Notes under the pieces: generated by a model
Seen by the model: only the letters and a program-made list of their open reading frames with translations
What the model was told of the DNA's origin: nothing
Database searches by the model: none
Part shown: positions 11,172 through 57,914 of the stretch, in pieces
Layout: each line of letters starts with the position of its first letter
Numbering within the stretch: position 1 is the stretch's first letter
Assembly: GCF_000003815.2 (NCBI RefSeq)
Contig: NC_049993.1
Coordinates: forward strand, 14,253,338 to 14,317,337
Direction of reading: 5' to 3'
Length of the DNA: 64,000 bases
Origin: Branchiostoma floridae
Lineage: Eukaryota; Chordata; Leptocardii; Amphioxiformes; Branchiostomatidae
Program-made: the position numbers and the translations under genes

Positions 11172-13889
11172 CTAAAACAAGTTGAAAGACTACCTTTTCA
11201 TGCTCGAATCCGTAGTTATTTGTCATGTCGTTTCTTCTTGTACCTTAGGATTGCCTTGGATCCGCTCATCGTTCAAGCTGCCTGGAGATCCTTTATCTAC
11301 GGATCACTGTGATCATGACAAATTCGGCAATTGAAAAAAAAGAAAGAAAAGAAAAAGATTGCGAGTAAAGCTGATTAAGTTCTTATTGCGGAGACAATCT
11401 GTGGAGAGAATTGAACCCAGGAGTTATCATTGTATTACGAAGTGTAGATCGTAACAGACTGGTCTAGATAAGTATAATGCAGATCACAGCTGGGTGGGGC
11501 AACCTTCGGACTAGCTATCGACTTTATCCCCCAATTTACTGAGGCGCTGTTATGCCCGAAGCAGGTTATAAGTAGATTTCTTCATGTGTTTTTACGGGTA
11601 CTTTTTGTCAAAAGCGATATGTCCACTGTTAGATATACATAGGTATATTACTAAAAGACTCTACTACACTTAAAATTGATAAACGCTTTTGTTACACTGT
11701 ATACTGTATTTGATCCCAGGTTTATCCAATGTAGTTACTACGTCCTCTTTACTATACAATTTCATCGTAATCGTTAGGAATATTTGAAGGCAACACAATA
11801 CTACGATGAGTCTGATTTGTGATACTATTCCAGGAAATAATCAAAAGAAGAAAAGCAAGAAACAACACAACATCCGCAACTACAATAAAAATATGCAGAA
11901 AAAAAACGTTAAAATTTCTTTGATTTTACCTATAAAGCCACCCAATGCGAAGCTAATTATTTATGCTCTGATATACAATGTATGCTATTATAAATGTGCT
12001 TGTCTTCTTTGAAAGATTTGTGTGAATTTCTGGCTTGACACAGCTGGACGCTTCCAAAATGAGACAAATAATGAATAATGGACTATCGAAAACTATCTCA
12101 TCGTAACATTGTTAATAATTAAAATTCAAAACAACAATAACATTAGGTGATTTCTTCACTACAGAAATTGGCGTCGTACGTGTGATATTTCAGTGCCAAG
12201 TATAGCAACACGATCAGCAACAAGGTTATTTTTGACGTCATATTAATTTTGATGTCATATTAATCTAAAGCCAGTTTCCTGCACGGATCGTATTTAATTG
12301 CGTGTCAAAAGCATAATTTTCCCCTTTTTATTGACGACAGAGTCGTAGCACTTAGAAATAGTTATACAGAAATTGGCATTTTCTTGTTTGCTTTGAATAT
12401 TTATCAAACTACATAAAAGCTTTCGTATTTTCTCGCATAGTGTAATTTATTGAAAGACCTATGATATGTTGATCCAGTCATGTTACATTAGAAGTGTGAT
12501 TTGTTTGTTCGCCATTGTGCGTTACATCATCAAATTACCCTTCACGCGTTGGAAAGTTTATAAATCCATTTCGGCACTCCCTAATATTTTATCATTGTCA
12601 CCGTGTGAAGTGTAGCATCATTCGACGCATGCAATTAAAACTCTAATCGTTATATTATGTTCATAACCCATAAAAGAATCAGGGCAGATAACACAGAATA
12701 CCGTTCATAACACCGGTAATCTATGTTTTATTATCCTTACTTTAACACCCCCTTTCCGCTCATAGGCATGGGGTTCATTGACCTCAAGTCGATCAGTTTA
12801 GAGGATGTAATATTTAATAAATTACATATCAGTTTTCAGTGACATCTTCAAAGAGCATGTCATTTTTTATGCATTCTATATAAAATAAGCTGCAGTTGTC
12901 ACACTTTTTATCACGCCATAAATGCTTTACGACAAATCTGTCCATGAGCCTGAAAAACACGTTTTTATCACATCACTGATTTATTAGTTGTCATACGGTC
13001 GTAAATAATCCCGTTAATATATTTATTTCCATTAGTAATAAAAAAGTAAAAAGTATTATTGTTACGTCGATTAGTTCCTGTTGAGTTTCTGATTTTGGTC
13101 GTAAAAGTTTGTCAGTTGGCGTCGAGGAACCAAAGGAGAATATTGAATTAAAAAAAGGCTTGCTGACACAGATTTTTTTCACAAATTCGAATCTGTGCTT
13201 AATAATTAACATTTTTACTTTTTGCCTGTTTTGTTTTTCTGGTTATCTTGTATAAAATCAGTTGGGTGTCACACTTTAATAGTTTTTGTACAAGTGGGAC
13301 ATGGTCCCTGGGTGTCTTGTAACCTGGTAATTGTTAAGACAGATGGTGCATGTTATCTTTTTAATCGTCTAAATCGTAAAAATCCATTGGCGTTTCATCT
13401 CTAGTCGTAATTCTATGGTATGGTGTTATTGAAGCAAACAACTTAGATGATAGTCTAACTTTATCTGTTTTGCGATAGACGATACCCTGATGATGTACTT
13501 TCTGTAACATTATTGTCCTGGCCAAGGATGGTGTGACCTTCAAAGAGTATACGTTTATTTCCGTTTGACAAAATGCCTTAAGCGGAGTCGCCTAAGGACA
13601 CCGAATGGAAAACATTCAAGGGGTATCAAAGCATCAAGAAGATAACGTTTTTCCAAAAATGCCTGCTCGTGTTTATCTTAAGTGAACCGTTCTGCTAAGT
13701 CGTCTCCTGTAGAAACCGCGTTGTCTTGGTAATTTATCTTCGTTTGGTACATCACGGATTTGGCAGGAAGGACGAGTAGGAGGGATTTGAAGTCTTTCAT
13801 GTGTACTTGAGTGTGCGTGCCGGCTGTAGGTAATGAACGGAATTGATGGCATGATGTACGACCCTGGTCACTCCCCGCGCTGTATGGGA
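11172..13889. other. AT-rich, no gene recognised
   Basis: Only short low-complexity frames, for example a lysine/asparagine-rich one at 11806-12012. A short tandem duplication (gatgtcatattaat) lies at 12232-12265. Nothing else is supportable. Confidence 0.45.
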
Positions 13890-15490: not shown

Positions 15491-16415
15491 CGAGGGTGAG
15501 TCAGAAAGTAATGCAAGTGGTTTCATAACAAAGTCGTTCTTTGATGGAATGAGTTGAAATTTGGCACAAAGGTTAAGACATATCTCCTTTTGAGGTTGAA
15601 ATATCTAAATTTGTTGCTCATTATTTTATGAGTGACTGACCTGCTTTCAAGGTGACCACACCCTTGGTATCCCGTCAGAAGAAAAGGGAGGTCCAATTAA
15701 CGTACAATTAAGAATTTCCCTAAACCAATTTTTGCTATTGTAGGAGATAGAGCCTGCACATGTAATAAGCTGCATTTTTCTATAAGCCACATGCTTAATT
15801 TCAACTCTGAAATCCGAGCAGTTTTTCTTTTTTCGTTGCTGGTATAGAGTGAGGTATAAGCGGTCGTCAGGGTCATGAGATCTGTGGTGTTTTGATTAAA
15901 ACTGCCTGTAGCCTTCTTTCCCATTAACAAAGAGAACTGAAACTTAGCACACTTTTTGGACTTTAAACAGTTAATAACTGTGTAAAGTTTCGTTTCTTTT
16001 GATTAATGAAAAAGTAGTCTTTTTACCAACAACTTACGAATTCGCGTATAAATCCAACAGCTCCTTAACACAACTTATCACATCCTAGCAGCTGTAAATA
16101 AAGAACCATTACGAGTTTAGAGATGAAAATTGGCACGCAACCTATAGAGACATTTGGTATTATACATGTATAATTTCAACCTCCTGCAGTGATTTTCAAA
16201 GGGTCATATTTAGAGGAATTGATAGCCTGACAAGCTATCAAGGGTGTGTTCATCTTGAAATCAACTCAGTTGCTCAAAAAAATGATAAAGACCGAATCTA
16301 AAACATTCAATCTCAAGAAGACATATATCTCTACTTTTGTGCCAAATTTCAACTCAATTGATTAAAAATCGAGTCTGTTATGAAACCACTTGCATTACTT
16401 TCTGACTCACCCTCG
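15491..16415. mobile_element. Mariner-type non-autonomous foldback element
   Basis: A 925-bp element flanked by TA on both sides (15489-15490 and 16416-16417). Its ends are inverted copies beginning CGAGGGTGAGTCAGAAAGTA and running about 40 bp nearly without mismatch. Inverted similarity continues imperfectly inward for about 170 bp on each side, including tgaaatttggcacaaa, agacatat and cacacccttg on the left against their complements on the right. TA duplication with such TIRs points to Tc1/mariner. No transposase frame of useful length is present, so it must have relied on an enzyme in trans. Confidence 0.85.
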
Positions 16416-18529: not shown

Positions 18530-18864
18530 TTAATAGTTGGAAAATCAAGACTTCTGTCTCTGTGGTAGTAGGACCTAAGTAGAATTTGAAAACAGCCATG
18601 AAGTATTTGGACTTAGTCATTGGTTGATCTCTAAGCAGTTGTAGGATACGGGTCAGTATTTTACGCTTGTTTTTAGTAATTTTTGTTATTCCTCTGTCTA
18701 GTAGGTTAGTCATTGGTGAGGTGAGAAACATTCGTTCGGAATCGAAAAGGGAAGGGTGTTCTTATTATTGTATTACAGAAAAGAGGGAGAGAGAGAATCC
18801 CTATCTACCGTCATTACTATTTTTCAGGTCCGTAATACCAGTGACCTTGTGCAAATATACATTA

Positions 18865-19387
18865 GGCCACAGCAAGTAAATTTCATAGATAGCATCAGCG
18901 CGCATTAACTTTCGCTTGATTTCAGAAAAAAAAAACATTATTTTTTTCTTCTGCAGGGATGGTCAACATGACGACAAAGTACCAAAATGAGCAAATATGT
19001 TGTGTTGTAGCCTAATAATTGTACTTGTAGAAGTGACACTCGCTAGGTACCCAGGACTGTAGTTAAAACTTATTGGATAGTTGTAAAGGTGACACCAATA
19101 TGGAAGCCATGAGTGTGGTTACCAACTTTGTTGGTGATGCCAGCTGCAGTCTGCCACACTAGTGTCACTTTTACCACACCAGTACATGTCTTGAATACAG
19201 GAATGAATACCTTGTTGGCTCTGATACCATGTTTTGTCCCTTTAATTCTTGTTACAACATTCATCACAACTTAAAGGTGCCTTTTTTTGGAAATGTTTTT
19301 TTTTTCACCCATGTTTTTTTTTCGCCCTATCGCACTATTTTTGCAGTCTGCAGAGGATGTCATCCATAAAATTTACTTGCTGTGGCC
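18865..19387 (+). mobile_element. Harbinger-type MITE, complete copy
   Basis: The element is bounded by a 3-bp TTA duplication (18862-18864 and 19388-19390). The termini are GGCCACAGCAAGTAAATTT and its inverted match AAATTTACTTGCTGTGGCC. TTA/TAA duplications with GGCCA-type ends fit the PIF/Harbinger superfamily (compare rice mPing, which has TTA/TAA and GGCCA ends). Poly-T runs near 19285-19322 lengthen it to 523 bp, against 388 bp for the 32707 copy. It encodes no protein. Confidence 0.85.
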
Positions 19388-19689
19388 TTACTCATTTGTA
19401 TTTCTTTGGCTATTGTAACAACAGACCCTCTTTTCCCAATACCATCCATATGTATACAGAAACACGAGATTAACTTCCCTATGCCTTACCATGCGTGCGG
19501 AGTGCAATAACACACCCTGTTCCATTCTTCACGGCCGTCCTTCTCCAGCCACGATGTCGTTTCTCCCTTAATTGAAATTCATGTCCCGGAGAGAGCTCCC
19601 ACTTTGGAGGCCTCCTTGTCTTACGGCGTCATCAGTTCCGCATGGCGCGATGCGCACAATATTACCCACACGGTGGCTGCCGATGTAAA
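19388..19689. other. Spacer without recognised gene
   Basis: No supportable feature. Frames overlapping 19568-19998 on either strand follow the tandem repeat downstream and are not convincing proteins. Confidence 0.4.
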
Positions 19690-26084: not shown

Positions 26085-28130
26085 AGAATTTTTATTTAAA
26101 TTAAGGCCTTGAGGACATTGAAGGTATTATGGTACATGACTATGTTACTATGCATTATAACAACAACAATCATACATTCTGCGACACTATAAATGATATA
26201 AATCTGGACTAGCTATGAGTCCTGTTTGCCTAATGTAAAAGAAGAATTATTATCAAGATACAGGCCTGGAGGACATTAATAAGCTACTTATCATATAGCT
26301 ATACAATTGCGTATTTAGAACATAACTGTTCTTCATTCTGTAATACTATAAAATGCAGTAGTGTAAAGGTGAACCTCATATACCTAATGTGCCATATGTT
26401 GAGCTTCGTATGTGTCTTATTAGGCCACAGCAAGTAAATTTTATGGATGACATCAGCGCGCTCATTCATTTTCGCCTGATTTAAGAAAAAAAAAAGATTT
26501 TTCCCTCTTCGTTGATTGTCAGACCAAAATAGAAAAATAACATGTTGTTTTGAGGCCTAATAATCATACCTGTAAAAGTAACACTAGGAAAGTAGCCATG
26601 ACTATAGTTGCAGAAGTGAAACTTGTTGGGTAGTTGTAAAAGTGCCACCAATAATGGAAGGCATGACTGTAGTTGCCAGCTTGCTATTGGCAAGTGATAC
26701 CAGTGCACCACACTTATATCACTTTTACTACACTAATTCACTTATGATACAGGAATGAATGCTTTTTAACAACATAGGATGTAAGTATAAGAAGAGTATA
26801 CATTTTAGTTTATTGGTAACTGTAGAATATTGATCTTCTACATATGTGGCCATAAAAACAGTTAACTCTAAAAAAATCTTTATAGCAGTCCAACAACACT
26901 AGTAATGATATCAATCTAGCATAACAGTGTGTCCAGTTTGATATGAAAGAAGAATTACAATTTAGATTTGGGGACTTACAACTATCAAAGTACATGGCTA
27001 TAAAACTGTACGTGTGTTATCAAAATCATCTTTATGTAACATTCTTCGACTCATCAACATTTTATCAATCTGGCGTAACAAGTTGTAAAGTTTGCATTTT
27101 ATGAAGAAAGGAATTAGTATTAAAATTGAGAGCTAGAAGTGATTAGAGTAGATATAATATAGCCATATAGCTGCGCGAGTATTATGAAAGCAACCTTTAT
27201 TACTGCTCCCCATTTTGCAATACTAGAACTATAAATGACATCGATATATCGTAGTAAGTAGTACGGATATGAAAGAAGAATTAGAGGTAAGATTAAGAAC
27301 TACATGGCAATGAACTAGTTAAAATATAGGTAGCTAAATAGCTTTCTTATGAAAACAATATTGATAACAGTTCTTCATTTTAGCAACGTCATAAATGTCA
27401 ATATAACTTTAGTTAGCAGTCTTGTTTGTCTAATATAAAAATAGCCCGATTAGATTACTAGCGAACATTGAACTATATGACCGTATAACTAATGTATGTA
27501 CTATCAAAAAAATGTCATATAACTCCACTTTGCAACACTATTAAATGATATTAATCTAGCGTAACACTAAACGTAAAAGAGTAATTATGACCTGGGGGTA
27601 CTTAACTATTTAACCAAGCATGGCTTTCGAATTGTGCATACTTGAGCGCTATAAAGATATGAATTTTGTGCAACATTTTGTCCATTTTCCCTTATGGTAA
27701 GTTTATTTCCTAGTTCATGCCCGTAGGCTAATTTTGAAGTACTTGGTAGAAAGATAGGGGATTTGATATATGGATGTAACAATGAACAGTGATACAAATT
27801 ATTGTACAATAAGACTACTCGAATACTAGACTAGGAGTAACAAAATTACACATATATGAAAGAATGATTAGACTTCACATTAAGAAAAATAACTGTTCAA
27901 GTATGTACAATATGTCCGTAGAACTGTACATTATAAGAAGAATCCTTCACCCTGCAACACTATAAATATATCAATATAGCGCAAGTGTGTTTAGTCTCCC
28001 TTACATATAAGAACGATTAGACTTCACATTAAGAAATGTAACTATTTAAGTATGTACAATATGTTGGTAAAACTATACATTATAGGAATTCGACGAATTC
28101 TTTACCTTATAACCATATAAATGTCCTCAA
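26085..28130 (+). repeat. Decayed ~160-bp satellite, about ten units
   Basis: A recurring module reads roughly: taactgttcttca, cattctgcaacactataaa, tgatatcaatctagcgtaac, a tatgaaagaagaatta run and a ttaaga/ggacatt stretch. Instances of the tataaatgatat/aatctagcg box occur near 26185, 26345, 26905, 27070, 27235, 27390, 27545, 27965 and 28115. Spacing is roughly 140-170 bp apart from MITE and decay interruptions. All units are strongly diverged from each other. A MITE at 26423-26780 interrupts the array. Confidence 0.6.
26423..26780 (+). mobile_element. Harbinger-type MITE, 3'-truncated
   Basis: Starts after TTA (26420-26422) with GGCCACAGCAAGTAAATTTT and follows the family through ttgatttaagaaaaa, ttgattgtcagaccaaaat, aagtgccacc and atacaggaatgaatgc. 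It then loses similarity before any right terminus. It sits inside the decayed satellite. Confidence 0.75.
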
Positions 28131-31298: not shown

Positions 31299-31714
31299 TC
31301 AGGAGAGACTTTCAATAATGTAGGGCAGGTAATAGGTCAGCAACGCAGTGAGATTCATCAATTTCTGGTTCCATACACGCTCCGGGCAGGAGGTTTGGGG
31401 AATTGGCAAGAAACGCGGCGTGTAGCTCATACAACCTCTTGAAGCTTGCAGCTCATCCAGAAGGTGACATCCCATAGGAATCTTTATGTAGAGGACCTTG
31501 AATAGCTGCATTTTCAATTTTGGTGGTCATCCCTCGCCGGGACACAAGTCAACGCCTTTGACAGCTCATTTATCTGGATCAGAACCGCGGGTTCTCTCAG
31601 GGAGTTGGGCGGAGAGGAGGTGATGACTTGGGGGTAGCGCTTGCCGTCTGCCGCTTGGCTTCCCGCGTGACCCCGTCCTGGGAAAACGGTGGATGGAATA
31701 ATATTGAATGTCAT
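31299..31714 (-). other. GC-richer open stretch, possible coding relic
   Basis: Two adjacent minus-strand frames cover this stretch. The upstream one contains SQAADGKRYPQVITSSPPNS and LIQINELSKALTCVPARDDH before its stop at 31514. The downstream one contains KIPMGCHLLDELQASRGCMS. Base composition is higher in G and C than its neighbours, and the frames abut at the TGA/ATG. No known domain is visible. It could equally be part of a repeat. Confidence 0.2.
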
Positions 31715-31770
31715 TTCTTGTTGGACCTTAGGGCGGTAGAATGTTTCGCAACTTTATAAGGCTCTTGTGT

Positions 31771-31835
31771 GGTATTGAGGGACAATTGGCACGGATACAA
31801 GAGTCCTGTATTTGTGCCAACTGTCTCTCAATGCC
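31771..31835 (+). ncRNA. miRNA-precursor-like hairpin (candidate)
   Basis: Two 29-nt arms (31771-31799 and 31807-31835) fold back over a 7-nt loop (agagtcc). Position by position the plus-strand RNA has 24 Watson-Crick pairs, 4 G-U pairs and a single A-C mismatch. The four wobbles become mismatches on the minus strand, so the plus-strand RNA folds better, which is what selection on an RNA hairpin would leave. The left arm contains ttgagggacaattggcac and the right arm tgtgccaactgtctctcaa. Length is right for an animal pre-miRNA; the loop is short. I do not recognise the mature sequence. A small MITE is the alternative. Confidence 0.4.
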
Positions 31836-32706
31836 TTGTGTGAACTTCGTGCTGTGATACCAGTGGTAATTTCGTCGATACTTACGATATGTTACCTGTG
31901 CAACTACAGAGACATGTACTGGTACAAATGTTCCCTGTGATTTGTATTTTTTTCACCAGAGTCGTACGTTTTAGTCACAAAGTAAGTCACAACGTTAAAC
32001 AATTGAGTGTAAATCTGTTATTTAGAGTACCAGTTCTTTGATGTTTTGCATTTTGGACCTGAGGCTTTCGCTGTATTTCACCCTTTCACATTCCTACTAA
32101 AAGTCAAATAAAACGAATGGTATACCTCGATATAGGCGTTTGCGGTGAGACAACTGACAACAAATGAATAAAAAAACTGATAGGCCCATGGCTGTAAAGC
32201 TCAGTCAACCACCTAGTTTTTTGGTGATGAACAAAAATGTCGAATTCCAAATGACAGTGCTGTAAAGAAAATCTTTCTGTCGTGACTGAGCATTAGCTAA
32301 GCACAAAAGTTCAATATCGACCTATCAATTTTAATGACTGTATTAAAAAGAATAAACCTTCCATGAACGTAACAAACGTTTGCAACTGTAAAATAAACTC
32401 TATCCAAGCACTGTACAAACAACATGTACGATAAAATCACAGTATTTTCCGGAAACAGTACTCAAGACGTCTTGGGTACTCAGAGAAGATTCCTGAGAGA
32501 TACTCGTCACAACAGACATCCGTTCTGACACGACTTAAGAGCGTCTTCAACCCTCCGGCCCTCTTCTTGACCGGGGCTAGCACTTAGCCCACCCCTGCTT
32601 TTATCTGAGCTCTCCGAATCCCAAGCCAAATGGTCCTCCATCAAAAGGAAAATTGACGCCTTGTTTCGAAGACTCGCGACGGCGATGGTTGTAAAAAAAA
32701 GACTAA
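31836..32706. other. Spacer, no gene recognised
   Basis: AT-rich sequence followed by a less AT-rich stretch at 32440-32690 without a continuous frame. Nothing supportable. Confidence 0.4.
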
Positions 32707-33094
32707 GGCCACAGCAACTAAATTTTACGGATGAGACTGCAAAAATAATGGAAATATGGCATCAAAACCAACAAGGCATTCATACCTGTATTTAAGAAAG
32801 GCAACAGTGTAGTAAAAATGACCATAGTGTTGTAGACTGGTGTCACTAACAATGTTGGCAACTACGCTCCATATGGGTGCCACTCTTATGGGCAGAAAGT
32901 TTCACTTCTGCAACTACTTTCAATGCTACCTCTTTAGTGATTCTACATACAAGTACAATCATTAGGTTACAACACAACACAACCTATTTTGGTCTACCTG
33001 ACCATCCCTGAAGAAAAAAAAAATCTTGTTCTTTTCTGAAATCAGGCGAAAGTTAATAAGAGGATGTAATCCATTATATTTACTTGCTGTGGCC
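32707..33094 (-). mobile_element. Harbinger-type MITE, complete reference copy
   Basis: 388 bp flanked by TAA on both sides (32704-32706 and 33095-33097). The termini are GGCCACAGCAACTAAATTTT and ATTTACTTGCTGTGGCC. Its reverse complement follows the 18865 copy closely, so the two are the same family in opposite orientation. There is no coding capacity. Confidence 0.88.
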
Positions 33095-33628
33095 TAAAAG
33101 GGGAGAGGTGGTCACGATTGATCATCGGACAGAAGGGTAGATTACCAGCGGGGAGGTCTTCACTAATGACCGGCGTCTGCTGCAAGAAGCTGCGATAAAA
33201 ATCAGGGTGAGGTTCTCTCTGACTGTGTGAGATGGCTCCCAAGGAGAGACTTCTGACATATCACTCAAGAAACACCGAAGCCTGTCTCAAGTACAAGAGG
33301 AAATGGGATGGCCCCTGAACATCATATCTATGTCGTATAACTCCTTGGGAGAGCTCAAGTTTAAGCCGAAAGGGCGAAGGAGAAGTCTGTTGAGACGGTG
33401 AGAAAACGGCATGAGTTGTAGGGGACATCGATACCAAGATGTCTGACTTAACTTACTAGATCCTGTCCAACATGAGCAAGTAGCGGCTGAGTCAAGTTCT
33501 AGAGATCATAAAACACACTTAGGTATAGCATGAATGTTTATCTGTGTTGGTAAAATACATTATGGAAAAATGCTAACAGTAACACTTAACATTCAACACT
33601 GGGGTTAACACTATAGGGACTTATCCTT
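33095..33628. other. Spacer, no gene recognised
   Basis: Minus-strand frames of about 60 codons exist near the MITE edge (for example 33042-33242, which partly reads the MITE). No feature is supportable. Confidence 0.35.
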
Positions 33629-33781: not shown

Positions 33782-36700
33782 CTACAATACACCTAGCATT
33801 TCCTATAATTCGCTTAGGTATAACTTAGACAAACATACAGTCTTAGTTTTTCTTTCATTTGGCCATTTATCATTTTAAATGTACCTCGACGATTTCAAGA
33901 CATTAGTGGTACATTTTGAAGTTTGTATTCAGAAATACTTATCCTACCGTTTAGCCTTTTCATCTGCCCAGTTACTTTAGTTGTGTCGATGAAAAGATTT
34001 GAGCGGATGGAATGCCTTTATCTTGCATTATGAAGTATATATAACATTTCTGGTACGATGGTACGATACCAGAGTCTTTGATTCAATACATTGTCACCAG
34101 GTCGCTCAAATGATTGAATACCTTTGTTGAAAAAAATTCAAAAGGTCGCAGTTATCGCTAGAAGGTCGGCCAGATTTGGCCGAGAAAGTTCTCATTCGGG
34201 AATAGGAGAAAGTGGCGGCTGGTAATCGTATGTCTAGACGTTTGACGGGCGGCTTCTCTTACTGGGCTCAGAACTGCCATGAATGCGTTATTCTGCTACA
34301 GTAAAGCTATAAAAGCACATACTACTCAGGATATTCACTTCTTCACAAGTTAGCCAAGTAAGAAATTATTGAAAATTACTTTTTCACTACCATAAACGCA
34401 GTCAAATCTGTAAAATGTATGTATTTCACACCTTGAAAAAGATAGGTGTACAATTGAATCATGAGAAACTCCATTTACCGTACAAGTAACTTACTAGTAA
34501 GTCTTTTATTCCCATCTATTGAATGCTCTATGTGAGGTACTATTCGATACAATAGGGTGGCAAAACATAAATACATTTCTTTTGAAGTCGATTTAATAAA
34601 TTTCAGATTTACTAGGTGTCGTATATACTTAAAAAAAGAACCCTTTTAGATTGGGAAAATTAGCCATTGAAAATTAATTAAGGGGAGCTAAGACAACGTT
34701 TGCTCCATTGTTTTACAGATCGGGTACTTTGGTCCCACTTTTTCGTGTTTATAAGATGCTTGGTCAGTGTTTCTTATGGCAAATCTTACCATCTTAATCA
34801 AAGGTCCTTCCGTCGTCCTACAGTGTGCAAGCCAAGTGGGGTACAGGAAAAACCGTAGCCATTATTATAAAGCCAAGTCCGTGAATGGATGTACGTAACC
34901 TGTGTTTATGAAAGGCGGTCTGAACTCTGTTTGCAGTTCTAAACACCATCGCAAGGTGCCGCACCTGTGCATACCCGAATGCATACCACTTCGTCCTTTC
35001 ACTATAATTGTTTGAGGACAAGTTGGAAGAATATTAGTGTAAGAATTAACACCGAACAATGCTTAAGGTTAATCCTGATAGTAAGAGACAAATAAGGAAA
35101 CATGTTTTTTTATCATATTCAAAAGAAAGTCATGTAAGAATAATTATTAGTTGCCTTACTGTATAACTCTCTAGGAATAAAAACAAAACAAAACTGATGT
35201 AATCTGATCTGATCTGATATCTATCCCTAACTATTTGACCGTTGGGACAAAACAAAAGATCTGGCGACCAGTTTTCACCACCCTTCTTTCCCCTTTTCTG
35301 TCGTCTTAATGTTTCTTTCTCGCTGGAAGTTTCCTTGAATGATAGCTTTCGCTAGTCCCGATGACCGTGACACGTTACCGTACCACTTCATCAAGTAGAA
35401 ATACAAAGGAATAACTCTAACAAAATAAAGTGGCTCCCTATCTACGCCACAGACACCCTTTATCACATTATAATCATACAAGTACCAAACGATTAGAAGC
35501 CAACATCACAGCCAACGTTTTAATGCACTAGAGAGGACCTCCCAACACACCAGATATCTAATTATGGAATAAATCCAAAGCATTTTATGACACGTGTCAC
35601 TTTTATGACCCGATAATCAAATTAAAGAATAGATTGTAACGTAATCATGTGTATAACCTTGTTTATACGCCATTTATTAATTCAATTGCAGTAGTAATAA
35701 ATCTAATGGCCTTTGTGGCTACCCGAGAAATATAGCAACGTAGGCTTAACAGCTAGCATTTGTATCAGGGTGAAAATGAATTTTCAAGAATCTATTTTGA
35801 ATATTTCACAGCGAAGTATTATACATCGAATTTAGTGCAATTCATGTAGTCATAAGATATATGTATCAAGAGCTCTACTCGTGGCGGTACTAACCTATTC
35901 TGGTAGATAAAAATGATTGTTACAATATGCACATGTTCTACAGCACGTCTCTACATTTTGGACGGCGATATTGCTTTCTGTCATGAACGCTATCATAATG
36001 TTCGTAAAACGTGATTGAACAGTACGAATATCAAGTATCTGTTACAGCTCAGATTATTGCTACTCAAAATTTTAGACTTCACGGGGAACTGCGACGTCAT
36101 CAAAATGGCGACAGCCAAGCAGTGAATGGTGATATCTCGTCCATAGTTTTCTCTCATAGTGTCCTAAGGTGTTTGACCCAATAACTGATGGAGTATCACA
36201 GAATCATATACAGAAACCAAATAAGACCCAACCACCACATTTAAATCAAGATATACGAGACATGACGACTTACATTTTTCGTACAGCAGGTCATTATCGT
36301 TATGGATAAACTAAACTTTCATTATCATTCTGAAATTTTACAAAGCAGGAGCGCCGCCTATTTATTACGGTGGAAACTGCAGGTGGCCTAAATGTGACCT
36401 TACCTGACCTAACAGAAGATGTCTTCGTTGGATCATGGCGTAGTTGGCATCAAAATCAGCGGTGGGTTGTTATTAAAGAGCATTGTAACATGATGAAGGT
36501 TATGCAATATTGAACATCTTTTGTTCCTATGTTCAGGTAAATCTCAAAATTAATATACGTCAATATGCGCGCGTTTATGTGCGCGTGTATTTGAATGCTT
36601 GGGGGTAAATACTTACCCCCTAAGCATTCAGATAAGTGTCAGCTTGTGTGTGTGTGTGTGTTCTATGTGTACATGCACGTGTGCGTGTTTGTATCCATAA

Positions 36701-39011: not shown

Positions 39012-40400
39012 TTACTCATGATCATTAGCATCTCCGAATGCCGAATCTTGGTCAGCATCTTTTTCAGCTTGGTTCTCACGAGCTTTATCGATATCTTCGT
39101 AAATATGACATGACTGACGCACGTTGGCATCGCTGGGCTTGCCTGCTTGTTCAGGGACTTCGTAATTGTTATCTTTGGCCCAAAACTTCCTACTAAACCA
39201 ATCTGTTATCTTGGGACCCAGAATGTAGGAGATCCCTACACTTGCTATCATTATGATGATGAAATAGATCAGGAGGTCGGAGTACTCACTCAAAGTGAAG
39301 TTTTTAGTGGGGACATAGTTGTTGGTCAAGCCGTTCATGAAGATGTAGACTTCTTTGGACCCGGTAGCAGGTTTGTTGAGGAAGTCGTTGGGGTTTGGCG
39401 GCTTGCTTTGTGGTGTTGTTGGGTCATTTGAGGCGGGTGCAGCGACGGCTTGTTCCGAAGAAGGTGAATGGTAGTGCCCTGCGTTTTTACCCTCGATGGG
39501 CTGGCTGATAGGCTTCGAGGTCGTGTTGTTTTCAAGGTCACAGTAACCGTCGTTTGCAGGTGCTGGACAACTGTCGTTGACGTAATCATCACAGACAAGG
39601 GTTGTAGGACTCAGGGTTGACATGTTGGCGTTTTTGAGCTCACACGGGCGGTCACAGAGCAAGAGTTCGCCATCTTTCACTGAAAACTTCCCGTTGGTGC
39701 TTGGGGTGAACCAGTCAAGGAATGCTGCAAGATGGCAGTCGCATTTTAGGGGGTTCTTTGCAAGGTAGATAGCAAGGTGGGGTTTCAAGGCTCGCAGATC
39801 GTAAGGAGGGGGTGTGGGGCGTTGAATCTTGTTTCCATTCAGAAGAAATGTCATCAATGTATGTTTATTATTTGGCAGCTTCATCGCATCCCAGGGAACG
39901 GCCTGCAGCTGGTTACAACTCAGGTCTACGTCTTTCAGGCTCCCGAGTGTGGAAAATGCTGAACCCGAAACATGTTGGATGCGATTGTTCTGTAGAAAAA
40001 TGGACATCACAGACGAGAGGCCGATGAAGAAGTGGTCTTCTATGTAAGGCAGGCGGTTGGTTGACAAGTAGAGATACTTGGCCTTTTTCAAGCCATCGAA
40101 TGCCTCCGCTTCAATGTCGGCGATGTCGTTTTTAGATAGATTCAAAAGTTTGACAGAGTAAGCGCCTCGGAAGGATCCTGCTCTGATCACGGATATGTCG
40201 TTATTTTCCAAGAATATGGACCTTGCCTTAGGTGGTACGGTCTTGGGTATCGTCTCAAGATTTTTGCCGCTACATAAGACCCATGTAGGTGTACAGGAAC
40301 ATGTTTTACAATAGTTGCCCTCCACCGCTTGGTTTGTAGGAGAATTTAGCACACAGAAAATGACAAAGATGAAGGCAACAGTGCGGTAGCTCACAGCCAT
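39012..40400 (-). CDS. LRR type I transmembrane protein
   Basis: A single-exon 462-residue protein. The ATG at 40398-40400 has an excellent Kozak context (ACAAAATGG); the frame is open further upstream only from a TTG, so that extension is rejected. Residues 1-26 form a signal peptide (VAFIFVIFCVL core). A cysteine cap follows (C31, C34, C36, C43: LRRNT). About six leucine-rich repeats span 58-195 (for example VKLLNLSKNDIADIEAEAF), then an LRRCT cap at 215-290 with NPLKCDC and later cysteines at 249, 253, 270, 278 and 287. A Pro/Thr/Ser-rich stalk of about 75 residues precedes a membrane helix at ~376-395. The ~65-residue acidic cytoplasmic tail holds NNYEVPEQ and HIYEDI, tyrosines in acidic settings that could be docking sites. 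N-glycosylation sequons lie at N87, N259, N275, N291/N292 and N367. The architecture implies cell-surface recognition or adhesion; the ligand is unknown and no orthologue can be named. Confidence 0.93.
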   Translation of the reverse strand: MAVSYRTVAFIFVIFCVLNSPTNQAVEGNYCKTCSCTPTWVLCSGKNLETIPKTVPPKARSIFLENNDISVIRAGSFRGAYSVKLLNLSKNDIADIEAEAFDGLKKAKYLYLSTNRLPYIEDHFFIGLSSVMSIFLQNNRIQHVSGSAFSTLGSLKDVDLSCNQLQAVPWDAMKLPNNKHTLMTFLLNGNKIQRPTPPPYDLRALKPHLAIYLAKNPLKCDCHLAAFLDWFTPSTNGKFSVKDGELLLCDRPCELKNANMSTLSPTTLVCDDYVNDSCPAPANDGYCDLENNTTSKPISQPIEGKNAGHYHSPSSEQAVAAPASNDPTTPQSKPPNPNDFLNKPATGSKEVYIFMNGLTNNYVPTKNFTLSEYSDLLIYFIIIMIASVGISYILGPKITDWFSRKFWAKDNNYEVPEQAGKPSDANVRQSCHIYEDIDKARENQAEKDADQDSAFGDANDHE

Positions 40401-40512
40401 TTTGTACACACAGCTGAACACCAACGGTGTTTGAGAGCAAACTGAGAGCTTGTGCGGCCTGCCTACGCATTTTCCCCAGACAATTATCAACTCTTGAGCA
40501 ACCCGCAGTAAA
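40401..40512 (-). promoter_or_regulatory. Upstream region of the LRR gene, with uATG or splice acceptor
   Basis: Only ~110 bp separate the start codon from a MITE. On the minus strand an upstream ATG at 40468-40470 opens a short frame that overlaps the main start out of phase and ends TGG-CTG-TGA. A plausible acceptor (ttggtgttcag) lies about 14 bases before the ATG, so the uATG may be intronic and the 5' UTR spliced. No TATA box is obvious. Confidence 0.35.
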
Positions 40513-41015
40513 GGCTACAGCAAGTAAATTTTATGGATGGCATCCTACGCAGAATGCACAAATAATGAGATAGCGTGAAGAAAAAGATTAGAAAAAACAA
40601 CAACAACAAGATGGCTAAATCTAAAAAAACAAACACCATAAACGTCGTGACAAGATTTATAGTGACAAAAACGTGGCATCACAACTAACAAGGCATTCAT
40701 TGCTGCATTTAAGAAGTGAACTGGTGTAGTAAAATTGATACTAGTGTCACTGATACACTGGTATCACTTGGCAAGTACATTCATGGCTTTCATACTGGTT
40801 GCACTTAAACAACTATCGAACAAGTTTCTCTTTTGCTATAGTAATGGCTACCTCCCCAGTATCACTTCTACAAGTATAATTGTTAGGCTGCAACACAATA
40901 CGTTTGCCCATTTTTCTCATTTAACTGTCCCCGAAGAGAATTTTTTTTCTTCTGAAATCAGGCAAAAAATTAATGAGCGCATTGATGTCATCCACAAAAT
41001 TTACGCGCTGTGGCC
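40513..41015 (-). mobile_element. Harbinger-type MITE upstream of the LRR gene
   Basis: Termini GGCTACAGCAAGTAAATTTT and AAATTTACGCGCTGTGGCC. TAA follows on the right (41016-41018); the left flank is AAA preceded by T, so the duplication is slightly degraded. Internal order matches the reverse complement of 18865. It lies immediately upstream of the LRR gene and could contribute promoter sequence. Confidence 0.82.
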
Positions 41016-41168
41016 TAAAAAAACAACGGATGACGAACAGCACGTGTACGTCACGTAAGCAAGTATAGGTTTGATTATTAAAGACGTGATGATTGTCTGG
41101 TTTGACGCACGCGACGTCAGGAAGATGAGTTTTTTTCATGTCTGACGGCGACGTTGTTGTGAACTTGA

Positions 41169-42215: not shown

Positions 42216-42224
42216 CGGATGTTG

Positions 42225-42307
42225 GAGAGAGTTTTTATATCCTAACTATTATATTATAAAAAGTATAAAAACCCTATCCAGCATAGCTAGGATATAAAAA
42301 CTCTCTC
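42225..42307. repeat. Perfect 20-bp inverted repeat, small foldback
   Basis: Arms GAGAGAGTTTTTATATCCTA (42225-42244) and TAGGATATAAAAACTCTCTC (42288-42307) match without a mismatch around a 43-bp AT-rich centre. It may be a tiny MITE; no clear target-site duplication is visible. Confidence 0.9.
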
Positions 42308-43045
42308 AAGCAAGATTTTTCTAGTATAAATTATTACCCGGATGTAAATAGACCTTTCTCTCTCTCCCTCTACCTCATCGTCTTCTCTCGCGCTTGTACA
42401 GCATTTTTTCAACATGATCATCATCATTTTGGGCGGCGGTTCTAAGTTCAGTACAATCTGCAACGTACACTTGTATCTTCAGTACATGAACGATAGCAGA
42501 GTCTTCACCGGCGTAGTTTTCCGGGTACTTCACCAGACCGATAGTATATGCCATCCCCTTTAGGAAAATCATGTCAAAATCAGGTCAAACCAACAGCTTA
42601 TTGAATGATATGTATTTTTCTAGTGATAGACTTTACTCAAAGGAGACAGTCCTCCATGAAACTTCCTGCAGTTCACACTTACCTTGCTAGGTGCGCTCTT
42701 TGGTGCAGTCACATGATGCAAATTAGCCAACCACACGCATTGTTTTACAGTTTTGACATAATATTGTCAAGCTGTATGGGGCGCGAACTTTGGAACTAGG
42801 CAGGGAAAATTAATTATTTCAAAGTTATCCATGACTATGGGTGTCCTTGACAGTGTTTGTATTGTGTGAAAAGAAGATTTGGGGCAGGGCTTGGCAGCTG
42901 GAGATGTCACCAAATACCTTCCGTACAGACACGGGGTTGGGAGGGGGGCTGCATGTAGAACTCAGGGTTTTTGAAGTTTGGAATCTCGTCTTATTCACAA
43001 AAATAACATAAAATGGAACTGAAAAAAAACATGAACACTCCCTAG
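42308..43045. other. Non-genic sequence
   Basis: No supportable gene. A 65-codon minus-strand frame at 42375-42572 is open but unrecognised. Confidence 0.4.
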
Positions 43046-44777: not shown

Positions 44778-45010
44778 TCAGTGAAAGCAAGTAAATCTTC
44801 TGGATGACATCAGCACGCACATTAATTTTCGCCTGTTTCAGAAAAAAAGAAGAGATTTTTGTCTTCTGCAGGGATAGTTAACATGACCATAAAGTGCCAA
44901 AATGGGCAATTATGCTGTGTTGTATCCTAATAATTGTACTTGTAGAAGTGAAATTAGCAAGGTTGCCATTATTGTGGTTGAAGAAGTGAAACTTGCTGGA
45001 TAGTCGTAAT
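44778..45010 (+). mobile_element. Harbinger-type MITE, left half only
   Basis: Starts with a mutated terminus (tgaaagcaagtaaat), then gatgacatcagcacgcacat, cttctgcagggatagttaac, ataattgtacttgtagaagtg and aagtgaaacttgctggatag. It loses similarity near 45010 with no right terminus. Confidence 0.75.
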
Positions 45011-57470: not shown

Positions 57471-57914
57471 AGTTTGACAGTAGTCATTTTTTTGACAGAA
57501 GTCTTTCTGTCAGTAGTCTTTCTGTTCGATAGTTGTACGTTTGACTGTACTTAGTAACCTAGTAAATTTCACAGAAGTCATTCTTCTTGACACTCTCATT
57601 CTCTCGGTAGTGTACGTTTGACAGTAGTCATTCTGTTTGGCAGTAGTCTTGTTAACAGTAGTCATTCCGTTTGACAATGTTCTTTGACAGTAGCCATCCT
57701 GTTTAACAGTGTATATTTGATAGTAGTTTATTTGACAGTAGTCATTCTTTTTGACAATGTTTCTTTGACAGTAGTCTGTTTGACAGTAGCCATGCTGTTT
57801 GGCAGTTTTTGTTTGACAGTGTATGTTTGGCAGTAGCCTGTTTGACAGTAGTCATTTTGTTTGCCAGAGTCTATTTGACAGGGTTCAGTCTATTCGACAA
57901 TGTTTGTTAAAAAG
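57471..57914 (+). repeat. Minisatellite (TTTGACAGTAGTC)n, left part
   Basis: About 20 imperfect copies of a gtttgacagtagtcattct-like unit with variable spacers. It continues at 59771-59870 in the same orientation on the other side of the pogo-type element. Confidence 0.88.

What the first reader, a model, noticed from the sequence alone, without database searches (positions are those of the whole stretch)
31771..31835. Near-perfect RNA hairpin with strand-specific wobble pairs: candidate microRNA precursor
Two 29-nt arms fold over a 7-nt loop with 28 of 29 positions paired on the plus strand, four of them G-U. Those wobbles would be mismatches in the minus-strand RNA, so the plus orientation is favoured, as expected if pairing is maintained in RNA. 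Beyond the arms, ~10 more positions pair weakly, giving a pre-miRNA-like lower stem. No other copy was noticed in the window, unlike the MITEs.
Basis: partly seen in the sequence, partly recalled or inferred. Interest (0 to 1): 0.7.

Follow-up and report, generated by a model that had tools for sequence, protein, structure and literature searches.

The report
Unique palindromic hairpin, probably relict insertion
This is a real, unusually well-paired hairpin that was found only once in its genome; it looks more like an old palindromic DNA insertion than a microRNA gene, though only small-RNA sequencing can settle that.

Summary
The hairpin is real. Window 31771-31835 has 29-nt arms with 24 Watson-Crick pairs, 4 G-U and 1 A.C over a 7-nt loop; 0 of 2000 window shuffles reach 28 of 29. 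The microRNA reading rests on weaker points. The wobble bias is 4 versus 1 (one-sided P 0.19), or 4 versus 2 counting the near-palindromic loop. The minus strand folds as significantly (z -7.47 against -7.07).

The palindrome is flanked by a perfect 8-bp direct repeat, CTTGTGTG, abutting a 63-bp core (chance 9e-5 to 2.4e-3 by tolerance), which looks like a target-site duplication. And it appears single-copy: the 65 bases match only themselves in 513 Mb, and a 26-place arm consensus with up to 3 mismatches finds only its own two arms. A control hairpin MITE 70 kb away gave 613 first-look candidates, so a recognisable multi-copy MITE is not supported.

Best reading: a lone, aged palindromic insertion, either a relict foldback element or a templated insertion. 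A lineage-specific microRNA stays open at about 0.2. No small-RNA data or sister genome could be consulted.

The parts
31771..31799 (+). 5' arm of the hairpin (29 nt)
   Evidence: 28 of 29 positions pair with 31807-31835 (24 WC, 4 G-U, 1 A.C)
31800..31806 (+). 7-nt loop AGAGTCC, itself nearly palindromic (of its 3 opposed positions 2 are complementary, the third is A.C; one central base)
31807..31835 (+). 3' arm of the hairpin (29 nt); if a microRNA, the 3p product would lie about 31807-31829 (inference)
31764..31771 (.). left copy of the 8-bp direct repeat CTTGTGTG, candidate target-site duplication
   Evidence: chance 9e-5 (exact), 6.5e-4 (+-1), 2.4e-3 (+-3)
31835..31842 (.). right copy of the 8-bp direct repeat CTTGTGTG
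31772..31834 (.). 63-bp palindromic core bounded exactly by the direct repeat: the proposed inserted unit
   Evidence: only itself found

Best explanation
A unique, aged palindromic insertion. A roughly 63-bp, almost spacer-less palindrome entered this site (no gene recognised nearby) by a staggered break, duplicating 8 bp (CTTGTGTG) on either side. It is either the last recognisable copy of a very small foldback/MITE-like DNA element or a one-off templated palindromic insertion. It has since gathered six transitions between its halves. The hairpin RNA it could form follows from the palindromic DNA. Shown: palindrome, direct repeat, no other copy found. Inferred: that the repeat is a target-site duplication, that the palindrome was once perfect, and that the hairpin has no selected RNA function.
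For: The perfect 8-bp direct repeat abuts the 63-bp core at both ends. 200,000 random 63-bp placements in the window give a repeat of 8 bp or more at 9e-5 exact, 6.5e-4 at +-1 and 2.4e-3 at +-3. In the sample from other contigs 0 of 10 strong hairpins have 8 bp or more within 8 bp of their ends; one has 7. Of 10 other hairpins tested in the 167-kb region 2 have 8 bp: one is a genuine MITE, the other was withdrawn. The MITE, 70 kb away, shows what such an element looks like here: 613 first-look candidates, 40 scored, and 8-, 9- and 8-bp direct repeats at the 3 of 3 copies inspected. The inverted repeat continues through the loop: the 65 nt and its reverse complement differ at 6 of 32 pairs, all transitions, 4 wobbling on plus and 2 on minus, so neither strand's RNA is clearly preferred.
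Against: No second copy found in the 513-Mb assembly, which is odd for a mobile element. The 8-bp repeat was noticed by eye after looking, and it is GT-rich. Under the automatic rule (extend the stem outward past a mismatch, then search +-5) the target itself scores only 6 bp, because the stem is extended into the repeat. The strict element scan does not find the target (its arms hold G-U pairs), and the laxer scan does not single it out. Six of six differences are transitions, against 39 of 73 pooled over 16 other hairpins that I chose from the lists; at that rate about 0.02 (my arithmetic), a weak hint that pairing was kept. No empty allele or sister genome was available to show the insertion.
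Confidence: 0.45

Rival explanations
1. A lineage-specific microRNA gene. Drosha and Dicer would cut the plus-strand hairpin into a duplex of about 22 bp, with a 3p product near 31807-31829 (UGUAUUUGUGCCAACUGUCUCU or an isomer), silencing targets by its seed.
For: No other copy found; 28/29 pairing and z -7.07; duplex well inside the published structural limits for animals (up to 7 mismatches, no asymmetric bulge over 3; Table 1 passage of PMC12594335); all six differences between the halves are transitions; a CNNC motif at 31845-31848 lies at a fitting distance (motif and distance recalled from general knowledge; position read).
Against: 8-bp direct repeat at the ends; near-palindromic 7-nt loop; only about 8 bp of stem below the possible Drosha site (inference from the assumed product) and no stable lower stem; no strand preference in z; no Rfam match; six strings of 16-21 nt from the plus-strand arms, in RNA or DNA spelling, are in none of the held papers' main texts (supplements and miRBase not searched); the one upstream fold tested as a possible cluster neighbour, 31581-31680, has z -0.04.
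Confidence: 0.2
2. A quasi-palindrome made in place by strand switching during replication or repair: one arm was copied from the other, with no mobile element; the flanking 8-bp repeat is coincidence or a repair footprint.
For: No other copy of either arm in the genome at up to 3 mismatches over 26 places, as expected if the sequence was made locally; almost no spacer.
Against: Does not predict an exact 8-bp direct repeat at both ends (chance 9e-5 to 2.4e-3).
Confidence: 0.25
3. An ordinary member of a multi-copy MITE family.
For: 8-bp direct repeat and hairpin form; MITE-like repeats abound nearby.
Against: Whole-genome DNA search to E 10: 1 first-look candidate, itself, against 613 for the control MITE. 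23-mer and 26-place arm patterns with up to 3 mismatches: only itself.
Confidence: 0.07

Closest known systems
Hairpin (palindromic) MITEs with 8- to 9-bp target-site duplications, such as the family at G000:C15:14355536-14355632 found here
   Same: Palindromic hairpin flanked by a perfect 8-bp direct repeat
   Different: No other copy found; 63 against 97 bp; ends GTATTGAG...CTCAATGC are unlike that family's TAGCCTGAG...CTCAGGCTA, and also unlike the C/T-A starts recalled for hAT ends
Animal microRNA precursors (miRBase/MirGeneDB type), including amphioxus-specific ones
   Same: Single-copy, unbranched hairpin, 28/29 paired, strongly negative folding z
   Different: Near-spacerless palindrome with a 7-nt loop, no stable lower stem, direct repeat at its ends; no expression evidence
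microRNAs born from palindromic transposons (human mir-548 from MADE1; recalled, no call)
   Same: Would combine both readings: inserted palindrome later processed as a microRNA
   Different: mir-548 is a multi-copy family (recalled); this locus has no other copy found

Membership tests
animal microRNA gene | 20-26-nt miRNA and miRNA* reads from both arms, 2-nt 3' overhangs, at least 75% precision (criteria in PMC12594335) | not testable with these tools
   No small-RNA reads available
animal microRNA gene | Duplex with at most 7 mismatches and no asymmetric bulge over 3 nt | tested here: met
   1 mismatch in 29, no bulge
animal microRNA gene | Stable lower stem below the duplex (about 11 bp, recalled) | tested here: inconclusive
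   10 scattered weak pairs past a 6x6 internal loop, changing with the folded length
animal microRNA gene | Conservation of the arms in related species | not testable with these tools
   The genome tool reports no relatives for this genome
known Rfam family | Match to a curated covariance model | tested here: not met
   0 matches at E up to 10 over 31650-31950; the window's 3 hits at gathering score are tRNAs
MITE family | Many copies in the genome | tested here: not met
   only itself in 513,431,437 bases; control MITE 613 first-look candidates
MITE / DNA-transposon insertion | Target-site duplication abutting terminal inverted repeats | tested here: inconclusive
   Perfect 8-bp CTTGTGTG abuts both ends of the 63-bp core; that it is a duplication is inferred, no empty site seen
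hAT-type element | 8-bp TSD plus hAT-like terminal motif | tested here: inconclusive
   8-bp repeat present; ends GTATTGAG do not match the C/T-A start recalled for hAT ends; no transposase searched for

The most novel reading that the evidence does not exclude
A very young, species-restricted microRNA (or hairpin-siRNA) gene caught just after birth: a single palindromic insertion, still bearing its 8-bp target-site duplication, whose only copy in the genome now yields a small RNA and is losing complementarity only through transitions.
Probability: 0.13. Interest if true: 0.5.

Novelty: new member of a known kind. Interest (0 to 1): 0.25.

Why it matters
If it is only a relict insertion it is ordinary, and a reminder that near-perfect hairpins with a few wobbles are common in this genome and cannot be called microRNAs from sequence. 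If small RNAs map to it, it would be a clean single-locus case of a microRNA arising from one palindromic insertion, testable against an empty site in sister species.

Tried and rejected
Rfam at gathering score and at E 10: nothing at the hairpin. Text search for six arm strings in held papers: 0 papers. Short arm strings looked for inside PMC2728532 and PMC6775235: 0; inside PMC5650284 only uuggcac occurs, twice, within the homologue of miR-4871-3p, unrelated beyond those letters. Pfam on 3 ORFs: one leucine-rich-repeat protein at 39012-40514 minus, 2 without hits; on 10 ORFs, 9 of them in 30.8-35.0 kb and one at 28.7-29.0 kb: 0 of 10 hit. The rest of the window's ORFs were not scanned, so intron or UTR placement is unknown. 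Bacterial promoter/terminator scan: nothing, and not apt for an animal.

The 8-bp repeat beside the hairpin at window-scale 68336-68434 was first taken as a further case and then dropped: it lies inside a longer repeat shared with 15916-16014. A first null for the direct repeat was spoiled by N runs and redone without N. Two scans for elements with flanking repeats led nowhere. (Watson-Crick ends only) lists 7 rows over k 4-12, all with self-palindromic repeats, and misses the target. (G-U allowed) gives 22 rows at k=8, 20 printed: the target, one self-palindromic repeat at 12854-13537 and 18 rows in the GT microsatellite; its shift controls gave 7, 11 and 9 rows. Rows with dinucleotide entropy under 3.0, 3.2 or 3.3 were dropped before listing.

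A covariance model R1 of both strands found, in 167 kb, the target on both strands and three matches at E 0.32-6.1; it could not be run on the whole genome. Supplements and miRBase were not searched. The species name is inference: 513.4 Mb, 431 contigs, large contigs of 19-35 Mb and my recall of the B. floridae assembly. Planned and never answered: an amphioxus microRNA pattern as species check, let-7 as positive control, copy number of the hairpin 42220-42312.

Full report
Where it is. The window is contig 15, 14,253,338-14,317,337, of a 513,431,437-base, 431-contig genome. Size, contig number and large contigs of 19-35 Mb fit the Florida lancelet Branchiostoma floridae as I recall its assembly; PMC7269912 (passages) reports 19 chromosomal scaffolds for it. 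No call proves the species. Three tRNA-Ser genes lie at 6-9 kb and a leucine-rich-repeat protein at 39012-40514 minus. Ten ORFs, nine in 30.8-35.0 kb and one at 28.7-29.0 kb, have no Pfam hit; no host gene was recognised, but most ORFs of the window were not scanned.

Arms 31771-31799 and 31807-31835 pair at 28 of 29 positions: 24 Watson-Crick, 4 G-U, one A.C. The plus RNA folds at -45.6 kcal/mol, z -7.07. In 2000 dinucleotide shuffles of the window none reaches 28/29 with loop 3-40. Only two GT-microsatellite rows equal it in the window, with 13 and 5 Watson-Crick pairs. It is not a chance fold.

But strong hairpins are common here. In the 167-kb region around it ten other loci reach 26/29 or more with loops up to 80 (my count, overlapping rows merged; low-complexity rows dropped, at least two GT-rich ones remain), and ten reach 23/25 in 71,048 non-N bases from eight other contigs. 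miRBase v22 lists 156 B. floridae hairpins (PMC6396948, passage). Structure alone therefore gives a low prior for a microRNA, if the species is right.

The strand argument is weak. An aging palindrome changes by transitions that wobble on one strand or the other, taken here as equally likely. In the arms 4 of 5 wobble on plus, one-sided P 0.19. The inverted repeat continues through the loop. Counting the loop, 4 wobble on plus and 2 on minus, for which the same binomial gives 22/64 or 0.34 (my arithmetic). The minus strand folds with z -7.47. All six differences are transitions, against 39 of 73 over sixteen other hairpins chosen from the lists: a mild hint that pairing was kept, on differently chosen sequences.

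A flanking direct repeat. The octamer CTTGTGTG stands at 31764-31771 and again at 31835-31842, bounding a 63-bp palindrome exactly. Among 200,000 random placements at that spacing in the window, a repeat of 8 bp or more occurs at 9e-5 (exact), 6.5e-4 (+-1) and 2.4e-3 (+-3). I saw it by eye first, and the automatic rule, which extends the stem past a mismatch, credits the target with only 6 bp. None of the ten sampled hairpins elsewhere has 8 bp within 8 bp of its ends; one has 7. Of ten other regional hairpins two have 8 bp. One, at window-scale 102199-102295, proved to be a real high-copy MITE: 613 first-look candidates, 40 scored, with direct repeats of 8, 9 and 8 bp at the three copies inspected. 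The other, at 68336, was withdrawn because its repeat is part of a longer shared sequence.

Copy number. The 201-bp surroundings at E 0.001 and the 65-base hairpin at E up to 10 each match only themselves, with one candidate at first look. The 23-mer of the 5' arm with up to 3 mismatches has one match, itself. A 26-place consensus of both arms with up to 3 mismatches finds exactly its own two arms, and nothing in the backward control. So at this sensitivity there is no recognisable family, no solo arm elsewhere, and no other sequence within 3 mismatches of the arms that could be a parent gene or a near-perfect target. The tool warns that it skips very common words and that no match does not prove rarity; the MITE control shows it finds such elements down to about 73-80% identity.

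Interpretation. The direct repeat points to insertion; uniqueness argues against an ordinary transposon and fits a microRNA or a locally made palindrome. I favour a lone, aged palindromic insertion (0.45), then an in-place strand-switch palindrome (0.25), then a lineage-specific microRNA (0.20), then a member of a diverged or missing MITE family (0.07). The microRNA reading meets the structural limits in PMC12594335 (Table 1 passage), but its defining expression features could not be tested. It lacks a stable lower stem, has a near-palindromic 7-nt loop, and has no Rfam match. Six arm strings occur in none of the held papers' main texts; supplements and miRBase were not searched, so this does not show it is unreported.

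Papers seen: PMC2728532 outline, sections 7 and 9 and a term search; PMC6775235, PMC6396948, PMC5650284, PMC7269912, PMC5802833 and PMC12594335 passages only; others search listings only.

Noticed in passing
window 32706-33095, 18864-19388, 26422-26765, 40512-41016, 44786-44998, 145-295, and about 4.0-4.3 kb upstream of the window: Copies of a repeat family with termini like AGGCCACAGCAAGTAAATTT, 66-74% alike over their longest aligned pieces, probably a MITE. Of three terminal strings searched in papers, one occurs in one unrelated paper.
   Followed up: partly
L011:8199-8295 (G000:C15:14355536-14355632): 97-bp hairpin MITE, 613 first-look genome candidates, 8- to 9-bp direct repeats at 3 of 3 inspected copies; on contig 11 half-element matches recur every 48 bp at two places.
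   Followed up: partly
L003, about 2634-2767 (window-scale -40703 to -40570): Hairpin with 28 of 29 paired (25 WC, 3 G-U) around a 76-nt loop, with wobbles on one strand only; another candidate for small-RNA mapping.
   Followed up: no
window 36587-36641: Strong short hairpin with a 4-nt loop inside the most stable of the 100-nt folds scanned over both strands; no copy in 167 kb beyond short chance-level matches.
   Followed up: no
window 42220-42312: Hairpin with a third, partly repeated inverted copy inside (42264-42284), so it can fold two ways; its genome copy number was asked but not answered.
   Followed up: no
window 57616-57881: Degenerate tandem array with units of 15-19 bp such as TCTGTTTGACAGTAG.
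   Followed up: no
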